Below are positions 542 to 56,522 of a DNA stretch of 64,000 nt, piece by piece. Each line of letters begins with the position of its first letter. Within the stretch, counting starts at the first letter, position 1. The notes beneath the pieces were generated by a model. The model had not been told where the DNA came from. It saw only the letters and a list, made by a program, of their open reading frames with translations, and did not search any database. The position numbers and the translations under genes are program-made. The DNA comes from Megaleporinus macrocephalus (taxonomy: Eukaryota; Chordata; Actinopteri; Characiformes; Anostomidae). Where the stretch lies: positions 27,061,018 to 27,125,017 of the forward strand of contig CM038708.1 of the NCBI GenBank assembly GCA_021613375.1, given 5' to 3'.

Positions 542-21188
<20,647 letters not shown>

Positions 21189-21619: not shown

Positions 21620-21740
21620 GACAGACAGAACATGCCAGCGAACAAAACTAGCGTACGACCATTACAGCCCTGTTCAGTTTTATTGTATCAGTGGTATGTA
21701 TATTATTGTAGTATGCATAGTATTAGTGCCATGTATAGTA

Positions 21741-22500
21741 TAGTAGTATAGTATCAGTAGTATGTATAGTATCAGTAGTTTGTATAGTATCAGTAGTATG
21801 TGTAGGGTCAGTAGTTTGTATAGTATTAGTAGTATGTGTGGGATTAGTAGTTTGTATAGTTTCAGTAATATGTGTAGGGTCAGTAGTTTGTATAGTAATA
21901 GTAGTATGTGTAGGGTCAGTAGTTTGTATAGTATTAGTAGTATGTGTATGATCAGTAGTTTGTATAGTATCAGTAGTATGTGTGGGATCAGTAGTTTGTA
22001 TAGTATTAGAAGTATGTGTAGTATCAGTAGTATGTGTAGTATCAGTAGAATGTGTAGGATCAGTAGTTTGTATAGTATCAGTAGTATGTGTAGGATTAGT
22101 AGTATGCTTAGAATCAGTAGTATGTGTAGTATCAGTAGTTTGTACAGTATCAGTAGTATGTGTAGGGCCAGTAGTTTGTATAGTTATAGTAGTATGTGTA
22201 TGGTCAGTAGTTTGTATAGTATCAGTAGTATTTGTGGGATCAGTAGTTTGTATAGTATTAGTAGTATGTGTAGTATCAGTAGTATGTGTAGTATCAGTAG
22301 TACGTGTAGTATCAGTAGAATGTGTAGGATCAGTAGTTTTTATAGTATCAGTAGTATGTGTAGTATCAGTAGTTTGTATAGTATCAGTAGCATGTGTAGG
22401 GTCAGTAGTTTGTATAGTATTAGTAGTATGTGTGGGATCAGTAGTTTGTATAGTATCAGAAGTATGTGTAGGGTCAGTAGTTTGTATAGTATCTAGTACT
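21741..22500. repeat. 18-bp / 36-bp minisatellite upstream of CCDC149
   Basis: About 42 units of TAGTATCAGTAGTTTGTA and its variant with GTATGTG, often alternating as a 36-bp dimer. The period is divisible by three, so it leaves long spurious frames on both strands (TIQTTDPTHTTD-type on minus). It lies about 550 to 1300 bases upstream of the CCDC149 start. Confidence 0.95.
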
Positions 22501-22509
22501 ATATCTAGT

Positions 22510-24085
22510 ACTAGATATAGCTTGACTTGCAACGTGGTATTATCAGGCCATTGTTGATGAGGAACACTGAATTTTTAATATTTCTGAATAATTCAGATAC
22601 AGATTCATTCAGTTTTTATTGTGAAAAGGTTCACTGCTGAGAAAATTACAGACTTACTTTATTTACAGTGGTGGTGATAAGAACCACGAGTTCATTGCAG
22701 ATAGCTGTTTAATTTACTATACAAAAGCACCACTAAACCCGTGTCTGCTAAGTTTTTGTGTGGATAAAATAGATTTGTTCAGTGACACTTTTGCTGCATA
22801 ACAACCTGCATGTAGCCCTCCACCATGAAAGATCACAAAACAATTATAAAACAATGTGTCAGATATCAGATATATAGACATTTCATGTAATAACTTTAAG
22901 TGAGGGAGCTTGTGGAGGTTTTGTGACTATGTTTTTCTAGAACGGAGCGTTTCTAGTCAGACCACTCTGAATAAATGTTTACATCTTATCAATTACGCAG
23001 ATATTTAAAAGAAAATCAGCAAAGTTCCCCTTTAAGTGTAATACTTCAGAGTGAAAATAAATGTTGATTGATTGAATAATGTATTTGTTTTTAAAAACAT
23101 AATAACTTTAGGCCTCATATTAAATGTTAGGTGGCGACAACTGACAGAAAAATCTGGTCATTTGTCACAAATCATTATGATTTTGATATCTAGAAAAATA
23201 AAACAGTTATAAACATTGAATCTCAAGTAAAAGGTTATTTAACATTTAAGATACAAAATAACAGCTTTTATTTTAAAAACTGCTAATAAGGCGTGGCATA
23301 TTTTATCATTATCATTATTAATATCTTAGTATCTTTTGTACGTATATTGTGTATATTTTAAGTATTCAAAGAGTATAATCACTTCCTTGTTCTTTACCTG
23401 TTTCAACATATCAGATGTCAAAAAATATTCTGACATTGTGTATCTGCTAATGAATGTGTCTTGTGCTCCTGAGAACAACATTTATAAAGAAAGTGAAGAG
23501 AATGGTAAAATGAGACACTGAAAGTAATTTTAAGGTCTGAGGAAACGGAACTGGAAACTGGGAGGAATCTCCTATAACCAGATGCCCAATAATATGAAAA
23601 GCCAGCTTTTTTATGTATTTTTTTTAAAGTACCACTGTGTGATTCTTAACATGGATTTTATTAATAAACTAGATGAATTGTGATACATAAGGAAACACAG
23701 TGAAAGTAACTTTCAAATATTTACAATTATCTGATATTTTAGCTTGTATTGCTTAAAGCTAAAATAGCCTAAATCGTTCTGTTGGCACTAATACAGGTTT
23801 GTTGATTTTCTCCTGATATTCCCGAGTGGCTTTTATCCGATATATATTTTTATATCTCCCGCAAATCACATTTTAAAGTCACAGATTTGGTGTAATATTT
23901 TATAAAGCTGACATTGCAATGCTGATGCAAACCAAAAACCATTCACGTTACTTAACCTGAGGTTCATGTAGCCTGGTTGAACAGACACTGCTGACTGTCC
24001 AGGTTAAAAGTTTTCAGTCAAGTGAAAGAGCATCCACAGAGCTACACAAACAAAAAATTAATTGGCTGTGGTCCAACCTAAAATT
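22510..24085. other. Intergenic, no gene seen
   Basis: AT-rich sequence with no exon-like frame, no clear repeat and no RNA gene that I can recognise. Confidence 0.5.
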
Positions 24086-24837: not shown

Positions 24838-25030
24838 GAGAGCAATAGCAATAACCCCTATTAATCAGAACATTGTGGAGTCTCTATGCAGTACTTCGAT
24901 ATTGTCTTAATTAAGAACTTTAAGACTACACAGCATCTCTATCACAATTTTCTTCAGAATTGTCAGCTGCTCACAACTACCTTTTGATCTTAATAGCTAG
25001 ACTTCTCAGACCAGGAAAAACAAAAGCATT
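24838..25030 (-). pseudogene. Broken third copy of the ankyrin-kinase-KEN gene (kinase exon fragment)
   Basis: The segment aligns by eye with the end of the large kinase exon of copy 1 (about 27985-28145). It shares AATCAGAACATT, AAGAACTTTAAG, ACAATTTTCTTCAG and GCTCACAACTA in the same order and orientation. Downstream, CTCAGACCAGGAAAAAC (about 25015) resembles copy 1 at about 28349, which suggests an internal deletion. The HRD-region codons are disrupted and no long frame remains. It implies that the family was once larger at this locus. Confidence 0.7.
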
Positions 25031-26458: not shown

Positions 26459-29400
26459 TCATCCAATCACTGGTACAGATTTGAGCCATTTTCTCAGACT
26501 TGGTTTAGCGTTCCATCCTCTCACTTTGGCAAACTTGAAAACACTTCCAAAAAGGTCAGGGAATGAAGTCATCAGGTTTATTTTCTCTGCCTCCTCAGGG
26601 CTACACACACAGAAAACCCTCAATTACATGCAATCTGACACTAAGAATTACATAAGTGAAATGAAACACATACATATTTATATACTTACTAGTGTGTATG
26701 CAGATTCCGTATGAATCTCAGCAGGCCGAGCGTGTTCTCTGGGTAGGCCTTTTTCTTACCATCCAATTTTTGCACAAGCTCAGCAGGTAACTGTGGACAA
26801 ACACAGAAAAACAAGCATTCATAACAAAAAGCATTCTGTAGGTAAAGGTGGATTTATGGATATAGTTTTCTCAGTCAGTGAAATTTGTAATGTACAACCC
26901 ATGTGGAAATCTATCAGAATCACAAACACAATTAATGTTGCAGTCGATAAAAACTCTCACTTTTGTTTTCCACTCTGAAAAGGTTTTTCCCACAGTCAAT
27001 TCTTCTATGGCACGAAGGAGCTCCTCATCAGCAGAGCGACAGTTCTCCAACTCTTTCTCATTCCCCAGATTCTTTAAGTACTCCACTCTCCTGAGGGAAT
27101 GCAGAATATGTGAAATATAGTACACTAATATACAATATGCACTGCTCCCCACAGAACGATGCATAATTTATTTCTGAAAACATGGAGACCCAAAGGTCCA
27201 TGTTCTGTTATTATAGATTTAAAAGATGTTACTGTGTATGTGGTAATGAATTAAAAGTTAGGTCATGTAAAACATTTACAGCAACAATCTGACAACAATA
27301 AAAGTTTGGATAGGAAACCTGCATTTCCATATGCAAACGATTCTGGCGCATTATAGAATATTCTTTGGATTATGTCTTACCTTTCATCTGTCCAAAAGAA
27401 GGGATGAGCAAGGGTTTCCTCCACTTTAGGTCTTTCCTTCATATCATCACTGATCATCCACTCCACTAGGTCCTTTGCCATGTCATCTTTCAAATGTTCC
27501 AGCAAGTACCTCCCATCCAAGATATTAGTCTCACAACGAACACCTTTACCAAATGGATGGTGTCCACCAGAGAGGATGTAATACACTAACATTCCTGCCA
27601 CCTAAAACAAGGTGTGACAATTAACTGCAAGGGTCACCAGTCTTATCTGCAAAGCGCCACTGTGGCAACATGTTTTCATTCCAAACAAGCAGAATAACAA
27701 ATAATTATCCTCTATTTCAGTAACAGCACATTACCTGAATGTCAGAACTTCTCTTGTATGCACTGTTATCGTCCTCCTCAATAGTCTCCCTGGCTTTCCA
27801 GTACTTTGTTCCAGCGGCGCTAGTTCGCAAAGTTGTCTGTCCTAAATTTAGTCTCCGGCTTATACCAAAATCCGCTAACCTTGCCTTTCCTCTTATATCT
27901 GTTAAAAAATGAAAGTCATTATTACACTGAAAATGTATATAAATATAATGTAAGTCATTGTGATATGATTTTTATTTTCATTAGGGAGCAACAAGAATTA
28001 CTCCTACCAATCAGAACATTCTGAGGTTTGATGTCCCGATGCAGAACTTTCATCTTTTCACTATGAAGAACTTTAAGGCTGCACAGCACCTCCCATACAA
28101 TTTTCTTCAGGACAGCCTGCCGCTCACAACTATCTTGTGGTAAATGGTCTTGAATGAATTCTTCCAGCGTGTATTCACAAAGCTGAAGGACAAGATATCC
28201 GAAATGCTCATCCTCTGCAAAGTCCACATATCGCACAATAGAAGGATGGTCGAGCTCTGGAAACCGTAAAAACTGCTCTTCGTTTTTAAGGTCTTGATAA
28301 TTGGACTTAAGCATTCGTTTGACAGCTACCTCGGTGCCATCATCCCTCAGACCAAGAAAAACCTCTGTTCCATCACTTCCTTTAGCTATCTGGAACTCTT
28401 GACCGACACCAATTGTAAGACTCTTTAGTCTATAAACGCTACTCGCATCTATGTTAGCCAGTATCTCCAGCTTGGGCCTCCAACGACGACTGGTTTGGTG
28501 CCAATTTCTGGGAATATCAGGATTCTCTGTGGTCGAGGTGTATGCCTGCACACTGGAGATTGATTCCTCAACTGAAGTCATGGCTGTATCTGAATCTGTA
28601 GACTCTTTTGTTTCTTGTTCCTCATCTTCAACTGATAGCATCTCCTGCTGGCCTTCTTTCTTCTTCTTTTTCTTCTTCTTCTTCTTTTTCCTGTTCTTTG
28701 ATGGCAGGCTCTCCACCCCCTCACATAAACTGTCTAAGGCACTTGAACTTGGTGAACGTTTGAGATTTTTGTCCAGTCTTTGCAGTTTCTCCTTAATGAC
28801 ATCATCCGTTCTTATCTCTGCAGCATCAAGAACGCTTTCAGGCACTGAGAGTAACCCACACGAATGGATGTGTTGTGGAATAAACTCATAAAGATCAGCA
28901 AACAAGCGGTAAGTTAGAATGCTGACATTAGGTGAACACACAGATGTGGTGAGAGGTATGAGCCCATCGCACAGGTTCTTAAGAACAGCAACGTTAAGAC
29001 CTTCACCACCAGCTTTGTGCTTTGAGGACTTCTCCATAGTCACACAAAGTATGTTCAGTATCAGCTGATTGAGTACCTCATTCTGAGAGGGGCTGGCGGG
29101 CTGCACACTTTTTATCAGAATAGGTATAATCGCATCGAATACTTGGGGATGTATTTCTTTCATTGTGCGTATTACGGCCTGTAAGGTGTTCAGTGCAAAT
29201 GTTTTATGTTCATAAGGCGATATTCTGGGAAAGCGTTCAGCAAACCCTTTAATGTAGAAGTCAACGTTCCTGGAATCCTTCAGCCATTTGATGCTGCTTA
29301 GTCGATATTGTTCTGCACCTTGACCCACAACATTAAAAAATCTCTCAAATAAGGTGACATAGAAGGAGGGATATTCTTCAAGAAAGTGTTCCTTACAAAG

Positions 29401-30021
29401 GTTGAAAACCTCCAAATGAGGTTTTTTGGGAACCGCAGCAATGAAATCAAAAAAGATTTTACATTTCTTAACAGTTTCATTCTTTGAAGAGAGCTGCTGA
29501 ACAATATTGTGCAATTTGTTATCGATATTTGGGTATGCTCCATAATTCATTTCGGTATATGCACCAGCTTCTATAAGCACTTCGACCACATCCTCTCTGT
29601 TATGATCAGCAGCAAACTGTAATGGTGTAAAAATCTGTAATTGAGAGCCGTCTGGATTGGCTTCTGCTGCAAGCAGTCTTTTCACTATACTGCATGAAAC
29701 TCCTTGTGTACATGCAGCATAATGCAGTGGTCCGAGCCTATTTGTTGAGACTATATTAGGGTCTGCATGCTCTCCCAGTAGAAACGTACAAATCTTCTCA
29801 TTTCCACATGCAACTGCTGCTGAAAGCAGAGTAACATCATCATTCTGGAGTGCAAAAGGATAAAGTCCGTTTATATCGCACCTTCTGAGTAGTTTCTTCA
29901 ACTTTTTCAGCTTGTTGTCAACAATGCCTTGTATTATGGGATGTGTTGTCCTTGGCTCTGTAACTGTAACTGGAACTGGTACCTGAACTGCTTGAAATAC
30001 TGCTTGTATTTGTATTGCCAT
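26459..30021 (-). CDS. Ankyrin-repeat protein kinase/endoribonuclease (KEN domain), copy 1
   Basis: Six coding exons on the minus strand: 30021-28008, 27898-27735, 27601-27381, 27090-26961, 26790-26690 and 26600-26459 (TGA); 923 aa, all phases consistent. Domains: ankyrin repeats about 30-160 (for example [37 protein letters not shown]); a long helical, non-ankyrin region about 165-430; a Lys run at 445-455; a kinase about 540-800 with VAVK Lys 568, HRDIKPQN (Asp 663) and ADFG (Asp 681); and a KEN domain about 801-923. The KEN nuclease residues of IRE1 have counterparts at Tyr 859, Arg 871, Asn 872 and His 876, in [12 protein letters not shown]. By family knowledge such proteins dimerise through the kinase and cleave RNA; RNase L is the ankyrin-bearing relative. 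RNase L has nine ankyrin repeats and no such helical insert, so this is a related but distinct architecture. Ligand and RNA target are unknown. Confidence 0.9.
27505..29064 (-). other. Gene-conversion tract shared with copy 2 (39491-41050)
   Basis: From about 29064 down to 27505 the sequence is almost identical to copy 2, including the whole introns 27899-28007 and 27602-27734, which I see as identical by eye. Outside this stretch the ankyrin half of the large exon and the KEN exons show many substitutions, and flanking introns do not align well. Non-coding identity embedded between diverged coding parts points to recent gene conversion or unequal exchange, not selection alone. Confidence 0.75.
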
Positions 30022-30092
30022 TGACTGGTCAGTGTCACAGAAACTGGAGAATCCAGTTTTATAGTCAGATCGATCAGTTTAAAGAGGGCCTG
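28008..30092 (-). other. Copy 1 large exon including 5' UTR
   Basis: The acceptor CCTTTTCAG ends just above 30092, giving about 71 bases of 5' UTR before the ATG at 30021. This one exon encodes the ankyrin, helical, linker and N-lobe kinase parts and ends one base into the codon after NVLI. An ankyrin region plus half of a kinase in a single exon also occurs in RNase L genes, as far as I recall. Confidence 0.75.
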
Positions 30093-32000
30093 CTGAAAAG
30101 GCGAAAGAAAAAACAGAATTAAAATATAATCATGAGCAAAATGTAATACTTTAAAGCAATTTTCTTGGTACTGGATTCAACATTTTGTCAATAACAGCCT
30201 CATGTCACAAGGTGAGTTTATATTATAGTTTATGCAATAGCTTATGAATTCATTTATCATTTAGTAGTTAAGTTGCAGTCTCAATATCAGAGTGGTGGGG
30301 TGGGTTGGGGTTCAATGCCACGATATGCTCTAGAGATCTAGAGAGCAATCAAACTTGTCAGGTGTTCATTGTGTTTATAGTCCCAAGGAACAAAATATTA
30401 AAATAGAGAAATATGAAATATGCCTGTTTTATATGGAGTGTTATATTAGACATCCAGCAAAGCTTGAATAAAAAAACTGATTACATCTATCTAAGAACTA
30501 TGTACTCATACAAAACTAAAATCACGTGAGAGACAGATGAAAGAAAATGTGCAGAATAATCTGAATCTGAATAGCGTCAAGCAATCATATACCGTAAGTG
30601 ACCATAGCTGCCAGCTTCATACAGCAGATCTGGGACATACAGCTACTATTCTGTAGAGGTCCGATAACACTGTCAAAACCATGTACATAATGAGACACAA
30701 ACACGTGCAAGTATATGTGAATAAACGTGCCAGTAAATCGTGAGTAAAGTTAAATCTGCCTTTTTACTTTTATATTTATAAACTGCAACACAGCTGCAGC
30801 TCAGAGTTTACAAGCCTCAAAATGACTCATATAACAGACTCCCATATACACAGGCAGGCAGGTACATACACACGGATACGCACACAGGCACGTACACAAA
30901 CGAGTACGCACAGACACACACAGGCATGGACACATATGCTTACACATTAACACCCTGCGGACCCAAGAACACACACATTCATAGACACAAACAAGTGTGT
31001 ATAGTTATGTTACAACACTGGAAAATAACATACTATATACTATAATATACTATATATATACTATATATATTGTCGCTGTCTAAAGAAATAAACAAGTTTT
31101 GTGATATTTTAGGCCAATAGAAATGCTCCAAAATCACTTTTGAAAAATTCTGGTTCCATTAACTTGCATTAAAAGTAAAGAATGTTCTTGTCCTCTCCTG
31201 TAAAGTTGTTATTTTGGAGATACTTGGCGATACTGGACAGAGACGATATTAGACAATTGATTGCAAAATGCTGTTTCAACTAACACTCCCAAAAAACAAA
31301 ATACACCCATTTTCACTTATAGAAAAAAAAATACAAAACACACATGGATTAAACTTCGATAATAGCATTCTAATAACTTAGTTAATCCGAAAATACATTG
31401 TATTCGAATGTTTCTTGCAAAATAAAAGGATTTAAAAGATATTCCACAAGTCGCACGGTTGTGTGTCATGGCCAAGACAAATACGTTTCATAACCTCACT
31501 TTCTTCTTTACGTTCTTTTTGTTAGAACCTCAGACACATGTGGACGGCTTTAAAGAGAATAGATGTAACTCTACATATTTCCATATTTTCTAGCTTGTAT
31601 TTTAAATTTGCCGCCAAATTTAGCGTTTTGATGCATTTCCCGTGCAGCTCGCGAAGCTCAAAACACTTATTACTAGAACCACCCCTGAGAGAGTCCGAGC
31701 TGGCAGAGCGCGGAATGATCTGACAGTGACCGCAGTACACAACACTACTGTTTCAGGCTACAGTCTACCACCGCAAGTCTTAAATTGTGGTTTAAAAAAT
31801 CGTTACGTCTTAAACAAGCCCAGTACGTGCCGAGCCGGAGGAGAACAAGCCCCGTATGTGACCCTCTGAGGGTGCAGGACTGCTTTTCTTCCTGTCTTTG
31901 TTTTTATAATCTCTTGGCTTCCAGTGAGTCACAATAACACTGCATACGGTGTCCCTGTCATAAGTAAGGTAACTGAGCGAAGTGCTGTAACAGTACTTAC
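30093..32000 (-). other. Probable first intron of copy 1
   Basis: Between the 30092 acceptor and a strong donor-like ACG|GTAAGTA at 32001/32000 on the minus strand. It contains CA-rich and TA-rich simple sequence (30845-31070) and a fragment of the dispersed repeat seen at 2765-2885. No coding exon is evident. Confidence 0.5.
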
Positions 32001-32060
32001 CGTCTGTATACTTCTGTTGGGAATCCTGGACGTGCTGAAGTGGGGAAACCGAAACTGATC
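32001..32060 (-). other. Candidate non-coding first exon of copy 1
   Basis: A minus-strand segment ending TATACAGACG at a consensus GTAAGTACTG donor. Length and transcription start are unknown; the range given is a guess bounded by the ISRE-like motif. It would splice to the acceptor at 30092. Confidence 0.4.
32043..32056 (+). promoter_or_regulatory. ISRE (interferon-stimulated response element) motif
   Basis: GGGAAACCGAAACT matches the ISRE core GAAANNGAAACT exactly; on the minus strand it reads AGTTTCGGTTTCCC. It lies about 45 bases before the donor of the candidate first exon of copy 1. ISREs near the start site are typical of interferon-induced antiviral genes, so this supports interferon control of copy 1. 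No binding data can be seen here. Confidence 0.6.
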
Positions 32061-32099
32061 TTGTCTAAGATCTGATAGGCGGGGATTAAAGCTTCCCTC

Positions 32100-33630
32100 C
32101 AGTCGTCCACGCCTCTGCAAGGCTCTGTACCTCAAACGCCAAGGAGTTTCATTTCAGTGTAATGAAAAATGTAAGGTTTCATTAACAGTTTCTCTCGATT
32201 ACTAACAGACTCTCAGTGCTCGCTAGCACACCGTTCAGAAGATCTGGAGCTCAGGTGTGCGTCAGTGTTGTAAAACTCTGGACTCCTTTCACTGCATTAC
32301 TTCCTCATTACAAACTGCCTTCAGTAAACTCAGATCTTCACCTCTGATCTCGAATCTTATTATCTCTTTTGGTATTGTTTGACAAAATGAAGGTTCTTCA
32401 TGGGTTCACTTGCACTTGACGTCTTATTATACATAAAAGAGTGTTTTTCTATAAACAGCAGCTGGGGTGTGTATCTTGTTTAGCCAGTTTCGTGCCCTTG
32501 AAAAAAACGCAGGTGGGACGCAACTATCTCTATTTGCTGCATGTCATCTGATTCAGGTTTTCCCACCCGTTCACCACTGTTACACTTCCCTAAAATGGGA
32601 CTAGAGTGTGTACGGAAGGAAACACGTGGACACGTGAAGGGAAAGAAGGGGCAAAGAAGCACACAAACAACAGTGGCTCTAGTTTGAGTAGATGCTTTTT
32701 TTACTTTTTATACCTTGTACAATATTACAGGTGTTGAATATGAAGTATGAAGAAATAACTAAACTATGACATATTGTAACACTGCCACTTATTGTGAGTA
32801 TACATGCCAAGCAAAGATGGACAACAGACGGTGCCCAAGCAAAGAAAGTAATTAAAAATAGCTGACCTGCTGACCTGAGAGAAGAAAGGAGCAACAAAGT
32901 GAGACGTGTGTGAACTTACATATCCAAAATCATCAAAGTAACCCAGTCAAAAACTGCACACAACCCAACAGCCTCGTAACACCCACCTTCAACAACAGCA
33001 TGAAGGAGTACAATCCTAGCACAAAGGACAAGGCTGAGTGTGAATGTGATGTTTCAATATATTCTATATGTGATATTTAGTGTGAAGTTATACAACTGCT
33101 TTTAAATGAAACACGAATAATAGATGGACAGTCAATCAGAACATAGATTATTTACATATATATCTTAAAGGCACCTCAACAAAATATATATATATGAACA
33201 CTAATATTCTGGTTCAATCTAAAGAGTAACTAGGGTTGTCAAATTCAAAAAACAAAAACTGTAGACACGTGGCTTTGTCCTGGCAGTGATGATATGTTTG
33301 GTGGAGTTAAATAAATTGGCAAGTTTAAATACAAAACAAGCTAAACTCTAGTTTAGTTTGTGTCCAGTTTGAGATACATATAAAAATAACTCCTGTTTGA
33401 CAAGTGACATAAAAAAGCTGTTATAAGAATGAATTACCAATATGTTAATTTCCATATTTCCATTTTTAATTGTTATATAACTCTACCATGGTTACCGTTT
33501 ATATAGAGCACACATCAAAATAATAATAAAAGTCAAATTAATAATGAAACTTCATTATTAATGCATCTTCTTTTGAAAGGTGTGTTGTCATCATGATGTT
33601 TACCAACGCCGGACAGCAGCTGTTTCTTAC
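32100..33630. other. Intergenic, upstream of copy 1
   Basis: No supported coding sequence. The first few hundred bases may hold upstream promoter sequence; the rest is AT-rich with no repeat family I can name. Confidence 0.45.
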
Positions 33631-33634
33631 TGGA

Positions 33635-33986
33635 TGTCACACCGGTACGCACGGCTCCATCAAGATCCGCCTCTCCGGAGTATTAGAGGCGGACTCCACG
33701 CATCCTGCACACCTGTGGTGAATTATCCAGGGGACTATTTATACTGGGACACATACGCAGTTCAAATTGCGAGATATTGATACTCTGGTACCTATCGAGC
33801 GTTCTTCACTGCATTTACTGTTTTCTGGTTTTGACCCTTGCCCGTTTTTGACTTTGATTCTGCCTAGTGTTTTTCCCCTTCTGGTTTTTGATCTCTGCCT
33901 GGCTTTCGATTACGATTTTGGATTGTGTGTTTATTCTTCATTAAATCTGCCTGCTTTTGCATCCAGCTTCTTTGGTAAGCCTGACA
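33635..33986 (+). mobile_element. Solo LTR of a retrotransposon with 5-bp target duplication
   Basis: A 352-bp unit starting TGTCA and ending TGACA, the usual short inverted ends of LTRs. It is flanked on both sides by the 5-bp direct repeat CTGGA (33630-33634 and 33987-33991). The interior has the run of GTTTTTGA- and TCTGCCT-type blocks and ATTAAATCTGCCTGC common in fish Ty3/gypsy-type LTRs, as I recall. There is no internal coding sequence, so it is the product of LTR-LTR recombination. The orientation is inferred from the 3'-end-like ATTAAA signal. Confidence 0.88.
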
Positions 33987-34474
33987 CTGGAGACCTACAG
34001 AATATGAATATAAATCTTGTACAGGATTTAAGGCAACAATTTCTCCATTTTCAGAGCATTTAACATAAACAAGAACAATGTTTTTTAAGATTTTAGAATG
34101 GCACAATACAATTTAGCCTCTGTAGCAGCAGGACACTAGCTGTAGCTACATTCACACAGCTGACTTCCCGCTTTCTGCCACTTTTCACCTCAACTTTCAA
34201 AGCTTCCGCAGCTCCAGTTGAATCATGGGATAGCACAGTGTGCTACGGGCGCCTACTTCAAAATGTCTCCCGATTCAATAGGTCACCTAGGTAACATTCG
34301 TGTACTGCTTGATGAGTACTGTGTATTCGGGGACACCATCCGCGCTCGCCTACTGTGTACAGTGGAAGATTGAGATTTGAGATTTCAGGCACAGCTCAGT
34401 GTTACTTTCACATACACTGACAGAGAAGAGTGTCTGCACAAATGTGAGGAGGCACAAGTTAAAGTGACACCATG

Positions 34475-34690
34475 ACCAAATCCCCAAACGCACAAGCTAA
34501 TGCGCTAACCACAAATGTGTTAAGAGCCGGGTGCCACCCTAAGCTTGAGCTAACCACGTGAACTAACATGTTAACCACAAACTAAAGCACCAGCTACCCT
34601 GCTAACGCACAAACTAACACACTAACTGTGAACTAATGCACTAGATCTCATACTAACACGCTAGCTAATGTGTTAACATGTAATGTCTTA
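34475..34690. repeat. Degenerate GCTAAC-type short repeats
   Basis: Many loosely spaced copies of CTAAC and GCTAA within phrases such as AACTAACATGTTAACC. An old, decayed simple or minisatellite tract with no fixed period. Confidence 0.55.
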
Positions 34691-35019
34691 ACCTAGCATG
34701 ATAAATGAATATTGGACTAGCAATTCTGTATTTTTACCTGAGAGGCTTTCTTATTAACAAATACATGACAATGACATTGTAATGACAGTTTGTCAAGCAG
34801 ACAAAAATGAGTGAAGGGATAAATCAGCCAGGACAGCAGAAAAAATCACTCACCATTCAACATTAATCACTTCATTTACATTGCAGATGGAAACCAGAAG
34901 CACAGTAACAAGACATCGTCCACAGAGAAACGCTAGCTGGAATTCCATCGTCCAGGAGCTTTCAGGAGCTTTGGTTTATCTTTCTTGCAGGGTTCAAAAT
35001 TATACCATTATAACAATAT

Positions 35020-35225
35020 GAATGTAGTTACCATATGATACCACAGTAGATCACTTTAGATTTGTGGTTCTAAATATATGTGGTTACTACACTACTGTAG
35101 TAAAAACCATAGTATAAACACAATTTACCATAACATACCATAGTAGTTCATGTTAGATTCATGGTAAATACAATAACCAGAATTACTATACACTATCATG
35201 GTAAAACCATGGTAAATGTTTGTAA
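35020..35225. repeat. ACCATGGT/ACCATAGT-rich repeat, MITE-like
   Basis: Alternating direct and inverted copies of TACCATAG, ACCATGGTAA and TTTACCAT within about 200 bases. This gives a palindrome-rich segment typical of short non-autonomous DNA elements in fish. Ends not defined. Confidence 0.45.
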
Positions 35226-35794
35226 GAGTTTTTGGTGGTGCATAAATTGACATGACACAAACATTGTAAGTGGATAAGGGGAAAACAGGCAATAGAAAAA
35301 TGTAACTTGTCCCGAGTAAAAGGAGAGTTTATTTAAGATATGACATATTAATATAGTGGTGTTTATCAAAAGTGGGGTTCACTGACAAAACTGTAGATTT
35401 TAAATGAGGAGAGAACGTGAGAACAACATTCCCAAGAAATAAAAGTGACAAGGTATGAACAACAGTAAACATTAGCTTCAACAAGAAGACTTTTACATGA
35501 CAGTATCAAAGCCAACATAGTACATAGTTTGACAGGGTGGATTCAGGTTTTATGGAACGTCAGGCCGTCAATGAATCTATTATTTTATTCAAATGACCCT
35601 TGTTACTTTAATTAATCTGTGTACAGTATTTTGTTTCACATATTAAGAATAGATCATAGTGATGCCGATGATGCCAGATTCCAGAGTCCACCTTGCTTTT
35701 AAGTACAAATACATTCACTTCCACTGTAAATCACTTTTTCACATCATGTAATAGAGTAATATTTCATAATGTTTAGGTCACATTATTTAACCCG

Positions 35795-38700
35795 TTAGTC
35801 CATGTTGTGCAGTAATCCAATCACTGGTACAGATCTGAGCCAATTGTGTAGACTTGGTTTAGCGTTCCATCCTCTCACTTTGGCAAACTTGAACGCACTT
35901 CCAAAAAGGTCAGGGAATGAAGTCATCAAGTTTACTTTCTCTGCGTCCTCAGAGCTACACACACAGAAAAAATAAATTATACCATATATATATATATATA
36001 TATATATATAAACGGAACTTACAAGTGTTCGTGTAGATTCCGTATGAATCTCAGTAGGCCAAGCATGTTTTCCGGGTATGGCTTTTTCTTACTGTCCATT
36101 TTTTGGACTAGCTCAACAGGTAACTGTGGAAAAAACTCAGATAAACAAACATTTATTATGGTATTGTATTGTATACAAAGTTTGCAATTCAATAAATTCA
36201 ATAAAAGGTGAATGTAGCATATATCAAACTAACTTTGTCTGTCTTTAAACCAATTTTAAACCTATGCTGTATTATCGTTCTTTAATGCTGTTGTTGCAAA
36301 TAGAATGCTACGATTTTAGAATGCTACGATTTTGAAATGTTGATCATTTTGTAACAGTTTACTTGTATGCCCTATAAACAGCTTTGTCTGCAGCCATTTG
36401 CCATGATTTCTACTGAAGAAACTGATATCTGTCATTACGCGACCCCTCAGAGGTCTAATCTAACACATTTCACTTGAGTTAATAAAGTTATGGAATGATC
36501 CTTAAGATGATGCCAGAGATTCTCTTGAGGGGAAATGGCAACACCAAGCGGAGAGCTTGCTAAAACGAATACTGAAACAGTACAGAAGAACGTGCTAGAA
36601 ATTTAAATTGAATTGTGCTTATGAGAATGTGAGTCAGGTCTGATCAACCCTACTTTTGATTTCCACTCTGAGAAGGTTTTCCCCACTGTCATTTCTTCTA
36701 TAGCATGAAGGAGCTCCTCATCAGGAGAGCGACAGTTCTCCACCTCCTTCTCATTCCCCAGTTTCCTTAAGTACTCCACTCTCCTGAAAAAATGCAGAAA
36801 ATGTAAGAAAATACAGCAAAAGACAGATTTGCTATTTCCCACTTTTATGTTAGTCTAAGAAAAGACTAGTCCATGTATAGTCAGCATAGTCTCATAGACT
36901 AAACTAGAACACATAATGCCCCCTCAAGTCCTTTTTTAAAACTGACAAAATGCTACTCCTACATTACACTTGGCCAAAGTGTGTGAACACTTCTTCTTCT
37001 TATTGAGTTCAGATGTTTCAGCCAAACCTATTGCCAATGGGTATAAAATATCTAGCACATAGCAAAGCAGTCTTCAAAAAAAAAAGAATGGGTCATTCTG
37101 AACAACTCAGCTTTAAATGTGGCATTATCATAGGATGCCTACTTTGTCACAATTCAGTTTATGATTTTTTTTCTGCCCTGATACATATGCCCCTGTCAAC
37201 TTTAATTCCTATTATTGTGAAACTGAAATGAGTAGAAGTCCATGAGTAATAACAGTAACAGGCTACACTGTAGTCGACCATGCAAACTCACAGAATAAAG
37301 CCACCAATTACTGAAAGATATAGTATGTAAAAATCACCTATCCTGCGTCAGCACAAGAACTGTGCATTGAAAGCTGATGAAAGGGATTTCCAGCAGCACA
37401 CAAGCCCATGATCACTATGCACAATGCCTAGCGTTGGCTAGAGTGGTGTAAAGTACACCTGCACTGGACTAGAGTAGAGATAATAGGCCTGGCGCTGTTT
37501 GGGTAAGGTCCCTTGGTTCCAGTGCAGGATAATGTTGACAATGTTAATATCCAGACTACAAAGACTTTTTTGACAATTTAATGCTTCCAACTTTGTAGTA
37601 GCAGTTTGGTGGAGGCACTTTCTTGTACCAGAACTATTGTGCCCTTATGTACAAAGCAAGGTCCATAAAGAAATGGTTTGATGAGTTTTGTGGTTGAGGT
37701 CAGGGCTCAACCACAAGAAGTGAAAGGTGTTGAAAGGTGTTCATTTGGGTTGAGGTCAGAATTAGTTCTAACCTCAACCCCAATGAACACCTTTGGGATT
37801 ATTCGGAACATCCCTAAAAATAAACTTATTATGACCAATTATGTCCATCATGAGTAAAATAGACAACCAAACATCATTGTTCACCTGCTTTAGCCACAAA
37901 CTGTGAGCATTCTTAACTACAGGGGTTGGACAATGAAACTGAAACACCTGTCATTTTAGTGTGGGAGGTTTCATGGCTAAATCTGACCAGTCTAGTGGCC
38001 AATCTTCATTAATTGCACATTGCACCAGTAAGTGCAGAGTGTGAAGTTTAATTAGCAGGTAAGAGCACAGTTTTGCTCAAAATATTGCAATGCACACAAC
38101 ATTATCGGTGAAAGTTCAAAAGAGGACAAATTGTTGGTGCACGTCTTGCTGGTGCATCTGTGACCAAGACAGCAAGTCTTTGTGATGTATCAAGAGCCAC
38201 GGTATCCAGGGTAATGTCAGCATACCACCAAGGACGAACCACATCCAACAGAATTAACTGTGGACGCGAGAGGAAGCTGTCTGAAAGGGATGTTGGGGTG
38301 CTAACCCGGATTGTATCCAAAAAACATAAAACCACGGCTGCCCAAATCACAGCAGAATTAAATGTGCACCTCAGCTCTCCTGTTTCCACCAGAACTGTCC
38401 GTCAGGAGCTCCACAGGGTCAATATACACGGCCGGGCTGCTATAGCCAAACCTTTGGTCACTCGTGCCAATGCCAAACATCGGTTTCAGTGGTGCAAGGA
38501 GCGCAAATCTTGGGCTGTGGAAGATGTGAAACATGTATTGTTCTCTGATGAGTCCACCTTTACTGTTTTCCCCACATCTGGGAGAGCTACGATGTGGGAA
38601 AGCCCCAAAGAAGCGTACCACCCAGACTGTTGCATGCCCAGAGTGAAGCATGGGGGTGGATCAGTGATGGTTTGGGCTGCCATATCATGGCATTCCCTTG

Positions 38701-41700
38701 GCCCAATACTTGTGCTAGATGGACGCGTCACTGCCAAGGACTACCGAACCATTCTGGAGGACCATGTGCATCCAAAGGTTCAAACATTGTATCCTGAAGG
38801 CGGTGCGGAATTGACGCTGTATTGGCCGCAAAAGGAGGCCCTATACCATACTAATTAATTATTGTGGTCTAAAACCAGGTGTTTCAGTTTCATTGTCCAA
38901 CCCCTGTAATTAGTGAGCACTAATCTTTCTCTGGGTACTGCTGTAGGACTGGTTCACCTGGTTGGGCCTTCATAGCCTAGAAACCGTAATTGTGCCCTGG
39001 ATACCTCTGAAAAACTGTGTTTGGTGCAGGGGGCGCTTTGCACTCTGGTCAAACATGCAGTTGGGAAGTGATTTTAGGTGCTGAAGAGATCTATGATATG
39101 CTCTAAACAGCTTATTGTGACAAACTGTGAAGTAATGTAGAACAATAAATATTGTCCAGCAATAATTCAATCCATCCGATTGTAATATGTAGAGGCTACA
39201 AAGCACCTTCATTTCTGTGATCAACTCTGCAGAACGCAATTACCAAGATCAGGCACTCCTGCTCTAAAAAGCCTGCACTAATGTTCTCTACGGGAGGAAC
39301 CTACAGTAAACATCAGATAACATCCACTTAAATTTTGTATGATCAAATGTTTGAATTATGTCTTACCAGTCATCTGTCCAAAAGAAGGGATGAGCGAGGG
39401 TCTCTGCTACTTTAGGTCTTTCCTTCATATCATTACTGATCATCCACTCCACTAGGTCCTTTGAGATGTCATCTTTCAGGTGTTCCAGCGAGTACCTCCC
39501 ATCCAAGATATTAGTCTCACAACGAACACCTTTACCAAATGGATGGTGTCCACCAGAGAGGATGTAATACACTAACATTCCTGCCACCTAAAACAAGGTG
39601 TGACAATTAACTGCAAGGGTCACCAGTCTTATCTGCAAAGCGCCACTGTGGCAACATGTTTTCATTCCAAACAAGCAGAATAACAAATAATTATCCTCTA
39701 TTTCAGTAACAGCACATTACCTGAATGTCAGAACTTCTCTTGTATGCACTGTTATCGTCCTCCTCAATAGTCTCCCTGGCTTTCCAGTACTTTGTTCCAG
39801 CGGCACTAGTTCGCAAAGTTGTCTGTCCTAAATTTAGTCTCCGGCTTATACCAAAATCCGCTAACCTTGCCTTTCCTCTTATATCTGTTAAAAAATGAAA
39901 GTCATTATTACACTGAAAATGTATATAAATATAATGTAAGTCATTGTGATATGATTTTTATTTTCATTAGGGAGCAACAAGAATTACTCCTACCAATCAG
40001 AACATTCTGAGGTTTGATGTCCCGATGCAGAACTTTGATCTTTTCACTATGAAGAACTTTAAGGCTGCACAGCACCTCCCATACAATTTTCTTTAGGACA
40101 GCCAGCTGCTCACAACTATCTTGTGGTAAATGGTCTTGAATGAATTCTTCCAGCGTGTATTCACAAAGTTGAAGGACAAGATATCCGAAATGCTCATCCT
40201 CTGCAAAGTCCACATATCGCACAATAGAAGGATGGTCGAGCTCTGGAAGCCGTAAAAACTCCTCTTCATTTTTAAGGTCTTGATAATTGGACTTGAGCAT
40301 TCGTTTGACAGCTACCTCAGTGCCATCATCCCTCAGACCAAGATAAACCTCTGTTCCATCACTTCCTTTAGCTATCTGGAACTCTTGACCGACACCAATC
40401 GTAAGACTCTTTAGTCTATAAACGCTACTTGCATCTATGTTAGCCAGTATCTCCAGCTTGGGCCTCCAACGACGACTGGTTTGGTGCCAATTTCTGGGAA
40501 TATCAGGATTCTCTGTGGTCGAGGTGTATGCCTGCACATTGGAGTTTGATTCCTCAACTAAAGTCATGGCTGTATCTGAATCTGTAGACTCTTTTGTTTC
40601 TTGTTCCTCATCTTCAACTGATGGCATCTCCTGCTGGACTTTCTTCTTCTTCTTTTTCTTCTTCTTCTTTTTCCTGTTCTTTGATGGCAGGCTCTCCACC
40701 CCCTCACATAAACTGTCTAAGGCACTTGAACTTCGTGGACGTTTGAGTTTTGTGTCCAGTTTTTGCAGTTTCTCCTTAATGACATCATCCGTTCTTATCT
40801 CTGCAGCATCAAGAACGCTTTCAGGCACTGAGAGTAACCCACACGAATGGATGTGTTGTGGAATAAACTCATAAAGATCAGCAAACAAGCTGTAAGTTAG
40901 AATGCTGACATTAGGTGAACACACAGATGTGGTGAGAGGTATGAGCCCATCGCACAGGTTCTTAAGAACAGCAACGTTAAGACCTTCACCACCAGCTTTG
41001 TGCTTTGAGGACTTCTCCATAGTCACACAAAGTATGTTCAGTATCAGATGATTGAAGACATCATCCTGAGAGGGGCTGGCAGGCTGTACACTTGTTATCA
41101 GAATTGGTATGATTGCATTGAATACTTGGGGAGGCGTTTCCTTTACCATACGAATTACAGCCTGTAAGGTGGTCAGTGCTATGATTTGCTGCTCATAAGG
41201 TATTTTGGGAAAGCGTTCAATGAACCCCTTGATGTAGCAGTCAACATTCTTGGTGTCCTTCAGCCATTTGATGCTGCTTTGCCGGTACTGTTCAGCACCT
41301 GGGCCCATGACTGTAAAGTAATTTTCGAATAGTGTAACATGAATAAAAGGATGCTCCTCAAGAAATTGTTCCTTAAAGAGGTTGAAAACCTCGATTTGTT
41401 TTTTTTTGGAAACTGCAATAGACAGCTCAAAGAAGAGTCTGCATTTCTTAAAAACTTCATTTCCTGAAGATATCTGAAGAATAATATCCTCCATTTTTTT
41501 ATCGATATCTGGGTTTATTCTATAATTGGTTTCAATAAAAGCACCGGCTTCTACAAGTGTTTTGACCACATCCTCTCTGTTATTATAAGCAGCAAACTGT
41601 AATGGTGTAATCATTTGTGTTTGAAAGCCGTCAGGATTGGCTTTTGCAACAAGCAGTCTTCTCACTATCCTGAGTGAAACTGCTTGTATGCATGCAGCGT

Positions 41701-41986
41701 AGTGCAGAGGGGCGAGCCCATTTGCTGAGACTTTATTAGGGTCCGCATGCTCTCCCAGTAGAAAGTTACAAATCTCCTCATTTCCACATGCAACTGCTGC
41801 TGAGAGCAGGGGTACATCATCATTCAAGTGTGCGGAAGGATAGAGTCCATTAACATCAAACCCACTGAGTAGTTTCTGAACCTTCTTTAACTTGTTGTCA
41901 ATGATGCACTGTATTACTGGGTGGGTTTTCCTTGGTTCAACTGAAACTGGAACAGGCAAAAGTTTTACTTGAAGTGGGAATGCCAT
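35795..41986 (-). CDS. Ankyrin-repeat protein kinase/endoribonuclease (KEN domain), copy 2
   Basis: Six coding exons on the minus strand: 41986-39994, 39884-39721, 39587-39367, 36783-36654, 36123-36023 and 35954-35795 (TAA); 922 aa, all phases consistent. The architecture is as in copy 1: ankyrin repeats ([37 protein letters not shown]), helical region, Lys-rich linker, kinase (Lys 561, HRD Asp 656, DFG Asp 674), KEN domain (Tyr 852, Arg 864, Asn 865, His 869). The residue after that His is Phe where copy 1 and IRE1 have Tyr. The C-terminus is six residues longer than copy 1 because copy 1 has a TGA where copy 2 continues LLHNMD. The intron between exons 3 and 4 is 2.6 kb, against 290 bases in copy 1, because of Tc1 insertions. 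The acceptor before the ATG is at 41998; a first non-coding exon was not found with confidence. Confidence 0.9.
35984..36010. repeat. (TA)n microsatellite in copy 2 last intron
   Basis: Short TA dinucleotide run between the final two exons of copy 2; absent at the same place in copy 1. Confidence 0.85.
36965..37860 (+). mobile_element. Old Tc1-like element remnant
   Basis: Starts near ACTTGGCCAAAGTGTGTGAA. It contains decayed Tc1 transposase segments recognisable at DNA level: GTCAGCACAAGAACTGTGC (about 37346), AGCGTTGGCTAGAGTGGTG (about 37431), GCAAGGTCCATAAAGAAATG (about 37656) and ACCTCAACCCCAATGAACAC (37771), the last encoding the DLNP.EH region around the third catalytic acidic residue. 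The reading frame is broken throughout. It lies in the exon 3-4 intron of kinase-KEN copy 2, just before the younger Tc1 at 37920. Confidence 0.75.
37733..37794. repeat. Hairpin: 24-bp inverted repeat within the old Tc1 remnant
   Basis: Arm 37733-37756 and arm 37771-37794 are reverse complements at 23 of 24 positions, separated by a 14-base loop. The right arm is the transposase segment ACCTCAACCCCAATGAACAC; the left arm is an inverted copy of it. It probably arose by local inversion/duplication inside the relic. Confidence 0.8.
37920..38906 (+). mobile_element. Internally deleted Tc1/mariner transposon, TA target duplication
   Basis: Perfect 31-bp terminal inverted repeats (37920-37950 and 38876-38906), beginning CAGGGGTTGGACAATGAAAC. 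Both ends are flanked by TA (37918-37919 and 38907-38908), the Tc1/mariner target duplication. The 987-bp length is shorter than a full Tc1 of about 1.3-1.6 kb because the 3' part of the transposase gene is deleted. Perfect ends and a mostly open frame indicate fairly recent activity. It sits in the exon 3-4 intron of kinase-KEN copy 2. Confidence 0.95.
38106..38858 (+). pseudogene. Tc1-like transposase, truncated
   Basis: The frame reads [20 protein letters not shown] from just after a TGA at the expected start, then helix-turn-helix-like sequence, [26 protein letters not shown] with the first catalytic Asp, and [16 protein letters not shown]. After YPEGGAE it jumps directly to the C-terminal end, out of frame (the KGGPIPY end is read in another frame at about 38828-38850). 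The second and third catalytic acidic residues are therefore lost and no active enzyme can be made. The first Met codon also seems lost. Confidence 0.9.
38935..39245. repeat. Dispersed repeat fragment shared with 62285-62440
   Basis: CTTCATAGCCTAG with the surrounding ACTGGTTCACCTGGTTGGGC and TACCTCTG.AAAAACT recurs in diverged form at about 62335-62400. An interspersed element of unknown family. Confidence 0.5.
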
Positions 41987-43419: not shown

Positions 43420-44040
43420 GCTGCTCCCCTTCCCAATTACAAATATGCGGACATAACGACTGAGCTCATACAAAGCCCGCCCACCTGCGCTGCGATTCGC
43501 TCGTAGTTCATTTGCTCAAGCGGTCCACCAATGGCCAGCTGCGAGTGTGGAAGACACGTCCGTCCTGCTGGGAATACGGCTGGAGAAGGCGGGGGACCCC
43601 CTGTACGTTCCTCTTCTTCCAGCCTTATTTGTCCCAAACGACTCGCCTGTCTCAGAGTCCTGCTTACCTTCGACTTGAACTCAAGTTCATATTAAATCAT
43701 ATAAAATAATAATCGACCTCATTACTACCAGAAGAGGCACCGACCACACTTGAGTGTTAGTGTGTGTCTCACCCTGTGCTGCTCACACCAACTTCTTCAC
43801 TCTTCACTCTTTTCCTCCTTTAAGATCAGAGACCGCAAAGACCGAGACATCTCACGTTTTCTGGCCCTGGAACTGGAAACTTGTGGAGATTCGATGTGTA
43901 GAAAATAAAACTGTTATTCTCCTCCTATTCACAGCTGTCAGGGAGGGGCTTCCAAACCGTTTTTAGACCTCCTGCTATACGTCAGAGAACATGATACCAA
44001 CTGGTTATACTGACTGTATTCTGACTGACTGAATGAAAAT
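43420..44040. other. GC-rich unique segment, no gene assigned
   Basis: 43440-43660 is clearly GC-richer than its surroundings and holds CCAAT-type boxes (CCACCAATGGCC at about 43526). It could be a promoter, possibly of kinase-KEN copy 2 on the minus strand (a donor-like GCAG|GTGGGC lies at about 43485), but no protein-coding frame can be supported. Confidence 0.3.
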
Positions 44041-44085
44041 GTATGGCAAGATTAAATTATGTACATAAAACGATTTCTTTTGTGT

Positions 44086-44876
44086 GTGAAGAATATAAAA
44101 CAACAGAATAGGATAGAATGCAAAGAAACAGAATAGAACAGAATAGAATACCAACTAACAGAAATGAATTAAATACAATAAGTAACTGAATAGAATATAA
44201 AGTAATAGAATAGAATGCAAAGTAACAGAATAGAATATAAAGTAATAGAATACACAGTAACAGAATAGAATAGAATATAAAGTAAAAGAATGCAAAGTAA
44301 CAGAATAGAATATAAAGTAATAGAATATAATCCATAGTAACAGAATTCAAAGTAACGGAATAGAATAGAATACACAGTAACAGAATAGAATAGAATTCAA
44401 AGTAACAGAATAGAATAGAATATACCATAACAGAATAGAATAAAATGCAAAGTAACAGAATAGAATATAAAGAAATAGAATGTAATGCACAGTAACAGAA
44501 TTCAAAGTAACATAATAGAATAGAATACACAGTAACAGAATAGAATATAATGTAATAGAATAGAATACACAGTAACAGAATAGAATAGAATGCAAAGTCA
44601 CAGAATAGAATAGAACATAACATAATAGAATAGAATAGACAGTAACAGAATTCAAAGTAACAGAATAGAATAGAATACACAGTAACAGGATAGAATAGAA
44701 TGTAATAGAATAGAATACACAGTAACAGAATAGAATGGAATAGAATAGAAAACAAAATAACAGAATATAATAGAATAGAATAGAATACAAAGTAATAGAA
44801 AATAATAGAATATGAAGTAACAGAACAGAATAGAAAATAACAGAATAGAATACAAAGTAACAGAATCAAATAGATC
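44086..44876. repeat. AGAATAGAATA-based satellite array
   Basis: About 790 bases of AGAATAGAAT-type pentamers regularly interrupted by ACACAGTAAC or GCAAAGTAAC, giving imperfect units of roughly 20-30 bases. The minus strand reads as a long hydrophobic frame (ILFYSVT-type), an artefact of repetition. Confidence 0.93.
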
Positions 44877-44879
44877 AGA

Positions 44880-51519: not shown

Positions 51520-52337
51520 TCACAGGCTCAGATCGATAATGATGTGCTCAAATATCTGCGTGCTACCCTTGAAGCTGGAAGCGAAGATGAAGTCCCTGCG
51601 ATCTGTGGAGACCACGGTGAAAGAGCGTGGCGCTTGGATGTAGACTTCCTTAAAACGCTCAAAAATCTTCTTCTCCGCATCCCACAGGTAGATCTGTGAG
51701 AAGGTGTAGTCACTACCCAAAGCCATGTAGTACCGATCTTTGAAGGTGAATGGTTGAAGAATCATGGAACCTCTTGAAGGAAGGGCCTGAACCTCAGTGA
51801 AATGCTTGGCAGTCCAGTGAAGGACTTTGGAGTCACCAATGTATCGAGTCATAGCCAGGTAAATCTCCTCCTTAATCCAGAAAGCCTTGACAGCCACTAC
51901 ATCCTCCATGTTGGGGATTTCACCTTGCAAGACAAACTTCTGTACACTCTTGCTCCACTGGTAAATTACTGGCACTTGAGAACGACTGGCCAGGATGAGG
52001 TGAGCCTTGCCATCCAAGTCCACAAACTCTGCATCAGTATCACGGTACCACTCGTGCAGGGACTGGTAGGAGTAGAAGCCTTTGTCGTTCCACTTATAGA
52101 GGGTTGAAAGACCAGCCTTGGAGCTGTCTGCTATAACAAAGAACCAATCCTCACCAATCTGAAAGGCTTCAATGTCATTGGGCTTGGAGATCTTGGAGAC
52201 TTCAATGTCCTGAAACTTGTTGAACTTGCTTTGGTCTTCGTCAAACTTGTAGATGTGAGAACCTCCGAAAAGCTGTGCGACAATCACAAACACCTGGTTC
52301 TGGATGATCACTGACTTGCAGCCAACGATGGACTGAC
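51520..52337 (-). CDS. lgi2: LGI2 last exon: EPTP beta-propeller
   Basis: An 818-base terminal exon coding 271 residues, with a TGA stop at 51522-51520. It begins GQSIVGCK and carries most of the EPTP/EAR repeats, seen as recurring blocks such as VAQLFGGSHIYKFDEDQSKF, DWFFVIADSSKAGLSTLYKW and LALGSDYTFSQIYLWD-type strings, ending in FEHIIIDLSL. A single large EPTP exon is characteristic of LGI genes. Acceptor CACCGCAG. Confidence 0.95.

Positions 52338-56480: not shown

Positions 56481-56522
<42 letters not shown>

What the first reader, a model, noticed from the sequence alone, without database searches (positions are those of the whole stretch)
26459..41986. Tandem ankyrin + helical + kinase + KEN ribonuclease genes: an RNase L-like system with a different sensor
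Two intact 922-923 aa genes combine a short ankyrin array, an unassigned helical block of about 260 residues, a Lys-rich linker, a kinase with complete Lys/HRD/DFG motifs, and a KEN domain keeping the Tyr/Arg-Asn/His nuclease residues. Seen: the motifs and exon phases. Known: IRE1 and RNase L are the classical kinase-KEN proteins, activated by dimerisation. Inferred: a fish-specific innate RNA-decay sensor whose ligand is not necessarily 2-5A, because the ankyrin part is too short for the RNase L arrangement and the helical insert is extra.
Basis: partly seen in the sequence, partly recalled or inferred. Interest (0 to 1): 0.88.

Follow-up and report, generated by a model that had tools for sequence, protein, structure and literature searches.

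The report
Fish RNase L relatives with new sensor
Two neighbouring fish genes encode likely RNA-cutting enzymes that are cousins of the mammalian antiviral enzyme RNase L, but they keep a live-looking kinase and carry a different front-end sensor, so they may be an undescribed fish defence that does not use the usual 2-5A alarm molecule.

Summary
Two tandem minus-strand teleost genes (923 and 922 aa, six coding exons each) encode four ankyrin repeats, a ~265-residue helical block, a Lys-rich linker, a kinase and a KEN ribonuclease domain. They belong to a teleost family, often multi-copy and mostly 'uncharacterized'. Kinase and nuclease catalytic residues are kept in 116-118 of 118 members. 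Kinase-KEN trees group it with mammalian RNase L, not IRE1 (alternatives p-AU 0.004-0.013); a shared linker motif agrees. Unlike RNase L, the kinase looks active, five ankyrin repeats are missing, aligned 2-5A contacts are mostly lost (W60 0/118, K89 0/118), and the rest of the sensor is perhaps an ARM/HEAT solenoid. The copies share a recently converted kinase half but have diverged sensors. Gene A has one perfect interferon-response element near a likely first exon, not significant over the window. Most likely: a dimerisation-activated kinase-RNase of the RNase L lineage with a non-2-5A sensor, probably immune. Ligand and function are untested.

The parts
26459..30021 (-). Gene A coding region (923 aa): exons 30021-28008, 27898-27735, 27601-27381, 27090-26961, 26790-26690, 26600-26459
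   Evidence: open frame across six exons, junctions AG/GT
35795..41986 (-). Gene B coding region (922 aa): exons 41986-39994, 39884-39721, 39587-39367, 36783-36654, 36123-36023, 35954-35795
29548..29946 (-). Gene A ankyrin array, four repeats, residues 26-158
   Evidence: Pfam Ank_2; predicted structure helices 28-45, 65-83, 98-118, 133-151
28753..29547 (-). Gene A helical block, residues 159-423, possibly an ARM/HEAT-type solenoid
   Evidence: model; weak, sub-cut-off Pfam ARM/HEAT hits in some family members; marginal CRM1/ZYG11B/CAND1 profile hits
28402..28752 (-). Gene A linker, residues 424-540, with 11-Lys run and RNase L-like W-x3-S-x2-W-x3-L-x2-L motif at residue 507
   Evidence: low-confidence (disordered) around the Lys run in the model of a relative
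27395..28401 (-). Gene A kinase domain, residues about 541-795 (spans two introns)
   Evidence: Pfam Pkinase 547-795; motifs 118/118
26459..27394 (-). Gene A KEN ribonuclease domain, residues about 796-923
   Evidence: Pfam Ribonuc_2-5A; RNase L best PDB match for KEN alone; catalytic residues
27460..29059 (-). Tract of gene A that is 94-100% identical to gene B in 100-base steps, introns 1-2 included: probable gene conversion
   Evidence: dS by region
32045..32056 (-). Perfect ISRE (AGTTTCGGTTTC on the gene strand) upstream of gene A
   Evidence: one match in the window, shuffles mean 0.23, 21 of 100 shuffles have at least one
32001..32044 (-). Predicted end of a non-coding first exon of gene A, donor GTAAGT starting at 32000; acceptor AG at 30094-30093
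   Evidence: read from sequence; no transcript evidence
38112..38855 (+). Tc1-like transposase frame inside intron 3 of gene B
   Evidence: Pfam HTH_Tnp_Tc3_2 E 4.5e-12
24840..24986 (-). Decayed third copy: kinase fragment with in-frame stop
   Evidence: best tblastn E 1.7e-8; blastn 73-75% identity

Best explanation
The two genes encode a kinase-plus-ribonuclease of the RNase L lineage whose sensor has been rebuilt. Shown from sequence: four ankyrin repeats followed by a helical block, a Lys-rich tether, a kinase with all catalytic motifs, and a KEN domain with its nuclease residues, grouping with RNase L and not IRE1. Inferred: binding of a ligand or protein partner to the ankyrin/helical part pairs two molecules, the kinases trans-phosphorylate the conserved Thr-rich activation loop (TTxxT), the kinase dimer pairs the two KEN domains, and the dimer cuts single-stranded RNA. 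The ligand is probably not 2-5A. The role is probably inducible innate defence in teleosts, suggested by tandem copies, gene turnover, diverged sensors over a homogenised effector, and one ISRE.
Against: No biochemical or expression data. Only two IRE1 outgroups and only mammalian RNase L were in the tree, and the RNase L branch is very long (kinase stem about 3 substitutions per site), so long-branch effects are possible. In the combined tree RNase L falls inside the fish family with weak support (48/44). The ISRE is not significant over the window (21 of 100 shuffles have one), a looser ISRE pattern is rarer than chance (1 found, 2.0 expected), and gene B has only a two-mismatch version. dN/dS between copies is mostly near 0.3, which shows constraint, not positive selection; it is 1.03 in the second helical half but on only 3 synonymous changes.
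Confidence: 0.58

Rival explanations
1. It is simply the teleost orthologue of RNase L and still answers to 2-5A made by OAS; the sensor looks different only because fish sequences diverged.
For: Groups with RNase L; shared linker motif; [quoted passage not shown] the best ankyrin-profile stretch falls at about residues 20-159 in 41 and 60-159 in 39 of 105 mammalian RNase L proteins, i.e. repeats 1-4 or 2-4. The abstract of PMC6307210 lists fish among animals with OAS.
Against: Aligned 2-5A residues: W60 0/118, K89 0/118 (Ser in 116), E131 2/118, Y135 6/118; repeats 5-9 absent; kinase motifs intact. Some teleosts are reported to lack OAS genes (passage of PMC2852836). The locus lies between LGI-family and CCDC149 genes, not RNASEL neighbours in human (recalled).
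Confidence: 0.15
2. It is a fish-specific duplicate of IRE1 that lost its ER parts and works as a cytosolic stress kinase/RNase.
For: Kinase+KEN together score higher against IRE1 (164 bits) than RNase L (98 bits) in PDB; several database names call members IRE1-like or irl.
Against: KEN alone is closer to RNase L; the linker motif; family+human IRE1 topology rejected, p-AU 0.0046 combined, 0.013 kinase, 0.008 KEN; no strongly hydrophobic stretch in A or B (max 19-residue hydropathy 1.29). A higher kinase score to IRE1 is expected if RNase L's kinase decayed.
Confidence: 0.08
3. An RNase L-lineage enzyme used for ordinary cellular RNA turnover or development, not defence.
For: Strong conservation of the effector; no expression data.
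Confidence: 0.19

Closest known systems
RNase L (2-5A-dependent ribonuclease, RNASEL)
   Same: Ankyrin repeats, linker with W-x3-S-x2-W-x3-L-x2-L motif, kinase fold, KEN nuclease of RNase L type; [quoted passage not shown]
   Different: Four repeats instead of nine, added helical block, 2-5A contacts mostly lost, kinase motifs complete (RNase L is a pseudokinase, recalled and in a cited title); not shown to answer to 2-5A.
IRE1 (ERN1/ERN2) kinase-endoribonuclease
   Different: No lumenal or membrane part; KEN and linker are RNase L-like; tree separates them.
KEN proteins listed in the HEPN survey (PMC3710099, passages read)
   Same: Kinase-KEN with ankyrin repeats; that survey ties lineage-specific KEN expansions to defence.
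   Different: The KEN expansions it names are in Oikopleura and monocots; in the passages seen no fish family and no helical block are described.

Membership tests
RNase L | Nine-repeat ankyrin 2-5A sensor | tested here: not met
   Predicted structure shows four repeats then a non-ankyrin helical block; Pfam ankyrin match ends near residue 155
RNase L | 2-5A contact residues (W60, K89, F126, E131, R155; residue list from passages of PMC5927464; Y135 recalled) | tested here: not met
   W60 0/118, K89 0/118, E131 2/118, Y135 6/118, but F126 65/118; R155 lay outside the profile alignment. Depends on the repeat register, which was not unanimous
RNase L | Catalytically dead kinase (pseudokinase) | tested here: not met
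   Lys, Glu, HRD, catalytic-loop Asn and DFG Asp/Gly kept in 118/118; activity itself not tested
RNase L | KEN nuclease with Tyr, Arg-Asn, His | tested here: met
   118, 118, 116 and 117 of 118
RNase L | Phylogenetic grouping with RNase L rather than IRE1 | tested here: met
   limited sampling (10 mammalian RNase L, 2 IRE1); sister versus nested unresolved
RNase L | Activation by 2-5A | not testable with these tools
   Needs biochemistry
IRE1 | Lumenal domain and transmembrane segment | tested here: not met
   N-terminus is ankyrin plus helical block; max 19-residue hydropathy 1.29 in A and B
IRE1 | Active kinase joined to KEN | tested here: met
   by motifs and fold only:
IRE1 | Phylogenetic grouping with IRE1 | tested here: not met
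   family+human IRE1 rejected
HEPN/KEN ribonucleases | R-x4-6-H motif | tested here: met
   R871-x4-H876; definition in PMC3710099
ARM/HEAT solenoid (helical block) | Recognisable ARM or HEAT repeats | tested here: inconclusive
   At E <= 1: ARM_CPL3 14/52 members (best 2.4e-5), INTS7_N 10/52 (1.1e-5), UTP20_N 2/52 (8.9e-6), the best of each below its curated cut-off; profile best PDB hit CRM1 E 0.0085; block not folded alone
Interferon-stimulated gene | ISRE in the promoter and induction by interferon | tested here: inconclusive
   One perfect ISRE near gene A, looser pattern below chance; induction not testable here

The most novel reading that the evidence does not exclude
Teleosts keep an interferon-inducible, 2-5A-independent branch of the RNase L lineage in which an ankyrin-plus-ARM/HEAT sensor directly recognises a pathogen product and fires a still-active kinase and ribonuclease. 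The family preserves the live-kinase state from which mammalian pseudokinase RNase L arose.
Probability: 0.35. Interest if true: 0.87.

Novelty: new variant of a known kind. Interest (0 to 1): 0.7.

Why it matters
RNase L is a central antiviral RNase with a dead kinase, triggered by 2-5A (recalled; reviews). A conserved relative with a live-looking kinase and another sensor would show how the RNase L pathway was assembled, give a natural test of why its kinase died, and reveal a possible OAS-independent RNA-decay defence in fish, including farmed groups such as carp, tilapia and trout, where members sit in databases as 'uncharacterized' or under other names (IRE1-like, irlA, PAK 2-like, even 'mesothelin').

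Tried and rejected
Rejected: the higher PDB score to IRE1 for kinase+KEN as proof of IRE1 origin. KEN alone, the linker and topology tests disagree, and the score is explained by RNase L's decayed kinase.

Rejected: the ankyrin match to RNase L as proof of common ankyrin origin. RNase L is not among the 60 best of 305 PDB ankyrin matches listed, so only the register was used.

Rejected: a first mapping of 2-5A residues with MAFFT --keeplength. It mis-numbered human residues because inserted residues were deleted; the profile mapping replaced it.

Led nowhere: Foldseek and VIA searches with the N-terminal model were filled by ankyrin proteins. DARPin-Armadillo fusions took Foldseek ranks 1-4, but at query TM-scores of only 0.26-0.31. 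CRM1, ZYG11B and CAND1 were only marginal matches of the helical profile. Rfam at gathering threshold found nothing in 24-44 kb. The RNase L query listed 120 of 235 hits; all listed rows with organism names were mammals, so whether teleosts also have a nine-repeat RNase L is unanswered. Ten paper searches listed no study of this family (several matched hundreds or thousands of papers and listed at most 20). Chu et al. 2023 (PNAS, origin of OAS-RNase L), seen only as a reference, is not held and might already list these proteins.

Dropped rows: three RNase L proteins (P0199, P0211, P0288) were not cut by the pattern and left out of the tree. The tree had 43 sequences: 31 family (2 window, 29 fish), 10 RNase L, 2 IRE1. 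The AU test used 24 of these. Conservation counts used the 116 fish proteins of 860-965 aa out of 179 fetched, plus A and B. The structure alignments used 91 and 71 sequences. The register test used the RNase L proteins of 691-759 aa, 105 of which matched.
Full report
What is there. On the minus strand of this fish window lie two complete tandem genes. Gene A (30021-26459) has six coding exons and 923 codons; gene B (41986-35795) has six coding exons and 922 codons; the junctions carry AG and GT. They are about 84% identical in protein. Pfam at E <= 0.001 assigns ankyrin repeats, a protein kinase and the Ribonuc_2-5A (KEN) domain above cut-off and leaves roughly residues 160-430 unassigned. 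A decayed third kinase fragment with a stop lies at 24840-24986. A Tc1-like transposase frame sits in intron 3 of gene B. Neighbours are CCDC149 exons (15.5-18.5 kb) and an LGI-family gene (EPTP frame at 51.5-52.4 kb; its likely N-terminal exon near 61.5 kb was judged by eye, Pfam gave no match). The closest proteins come from characins (Salminus, Pygocentrus, Astyanax, and a partial Prochilodus protein), so the window is probably from a characiform fish.

A teleost family. A search with residues 1-430 gave 180 proteins at E <= 1e-3, of which 120 are listed (only the 7994 candidates sharing most words were scored); a search with residues 770-923 gave 149, of which 120 are listed. Every listed row that bears an organism name is a teleost, from Arapaima through herrings, carps, catfishes and salmonids to percomorphs; some rows are unnamed. 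Most named rows are called 'uncharacterized' or 'hypothetical'. Absence outside teleosts is not shown, because the search needs shared short words and the lists are capped.

Relationship. PDB comparison of kinase+KEN favours IRE1 (164 bits against 98 for RNase L), but KEN alone favours human RNase L (E 1.2e-6) over yeast IRE1 (E 0.13). In trees of 43 sequences the yeast and human IRE1 split from RNase L plus the fish family in the combined, kinase-only and KEN-only data. Constrained alternatives are rejected: p-AU 0.0046 and 0.0052 combined, 0.013 and 0.004 kinase, 0.008 and 0.009 KEN (24 sequences). A linker motif, W-x3-S-x2-W-x3-L-x2-L, occurs in 99 of 116 fish and 113 of 120 RNase L proteins and in 0 of 5980 shuffled proteins; it starts 38 residues before the IAKGSDGT start of the kinase in A and 35 before the matching IADTSEGG in baboon RNase L. 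The best PDB stretch to pig RNase L starts in this linker while those to human IRE1 start at the kinase. Against: the sampling is narrow, the RNase L stem is very long, and in the combined tree RNase L falls inside the fish family with weak support (48/44), so sister versus nested is open. Because IRE1 and the fish family both have intact kinase motifs, the simplest inference is that RNase L lost its kinase activity after the split.

Sensor. The N-terminal model (residues 1-430, 91 sequences, mean pLDDT 91, pTM 0.84) shows four ankyrin repeats followed by 15 helices. In mammalian RNase L the best stretch of the fish ankyrin profile is most often at about residues 20-159 or 60-159 (41 and 39 of 105), that is repeats 1-4 or 2-4, which include the 2-5A-binding repeats 2 and 4. 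At the aligned contacts the fish family has Val/Ile for W60, Ser for K89 (116 of 118), and rarely keeps E131 (2) or Y135 (6); F126 is Phe in 65 (contact list from passages of PMC5927464, with Y135 recalled). Repeats 5-9 have no counterpart. The helical block gives weak ARM/HEAT-type Pfam matches at E <= 1 (ARM_CPL3 in 14 of 52 members, INTS7_N in 10, UTP20_N in 2; the best of each is below its curated cut-off) and marginal profile matches to CRM1 (E 0.0085), ZYG11B and CAND1. The top four Foldseek hits to the whole N-terminal model were ankyrin-armadillo fusions, but with low TM-scores, and the VIA list was filled by ankyrins. I therefore call it a possible ARM/HEAT-type solenoid, not a settled one.

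Two copies, two histories. The stretch of gene A from about 29.06 to 27.46 kb, covering the second half of the helical block, the linker, most of the kinase and introns 1-2, is 94-100% identical to gene B in 100-base steps, while the ankyrin and first helical part is 70-87% and intron 3 does not align well. Synonymous divergence is 0.59 in the ankyrin plus first helical half, 0.035 in the second helical half, 0.08 in the kinase and 0.26 in KEN. This is the footprint of recent gene conversion of the effector side. dN/dS is 0.28-0.35 in the ankyrin, first helical and KEN parts, so both copies are constrained; it is 1.03 in the second helical half but on 3 synonymous and 10 nonsynonymous changes. 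Across the family, mean pairwise identity (1500 random pairs) is 0.42 in the helical block and 0.55 in the ankyrins, against 0.74 in the kinase and 0.62 in KEN. That fits, but does not prove, adaptation of a sensor to different targets.

Regulation. The strict ISRE GAAANNGAAACT occurs once in the window, at 32045-32056 (expected 0.23; 21 of 100 shuffles have one or more). The looser GAAANNGAAANY also occurs only there, against 2.0 expected. On the gene strand the site reads AGTTTCGGTTTC and ends about 45 bases before a consensus splice donor at 32000, about 2 kb upstream of the ATG, with an acceptor just before the coding exon. This would be a non-coding first exon. [quoted passage not shown] exact intron positions were not compared. 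The site was placed after looking, it is not significant over the window, and gene B has only a two-mismatch relative (43901-43912).

How it probably works. Ligand or partner binding to the ankyrin/helical part dimerises the protein; the kinase trans-phosphorylates its Thr-rich loop; the KEN pair cuts RNA. The last two steps are borrowed from IRE1 and RNase L (established for those families, recalled) and rest here on conserved residues only. The ligand is probably not 2-5A: contacts are mostly lost, repeats 5-9 are missing, and some teleosts are reported to lack OAS (passage of PMC2852836; but the abstract of PMC6307210 lists fish among animals with OAS). An immune role is likely but rests on indirect signs.

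Novelty. No paper describing this family appeared among those listed in ten searches. The HEPN survey notes kinase-KEN proteins with ankyrin repeats and KEN expansions in Oikopleura and monocots, not fish, in the passages read. Chu et al. 2023 on the origin of OAS-RNase L could not be read and may mention these proteins. I rate it a new variant of a known kind.

Noticed in passing
24840-24986 (-): Decayed fragment of a third copy (kinase region, in-frame stop), showing gene turnover in the cluster.
   Followed up: yes
37920-38906: Tc1-like element in intron 3 of gene B; a transposase frame on the + strand (38112-38855) between what look by eye like inverted terminal repeats.
   Followed up: partly
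51520-61548 (-): LGI-family gene (six EPTP stretches, similar to LGI1 in PDB) upstream of the KEN genes; with CCDC149 on the other side this looks like the LGI2-CCDC149 neighbourhood (human order recalled).
   Followed up: partly
15538-18469 (-): CCDC149 coiled-coil exons (Pfam CC149).
   Followed up: partly
8015-8698; 21680-22574; 44057-44914; 52944-53423: Long repeat-like stretches giving open frames with repetitive translations; probably not genes.
   Followed up: no
Database proteins P0104, P0112, P0113, P0116: Sarotherodon members of this family carry unrelated names (dihydroorotate dehydrogenase, AMP deaminase, polypeptide N-acetylgalactosaminyltransferase, mesothelin), probably annotation errors.
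   Followed up: no
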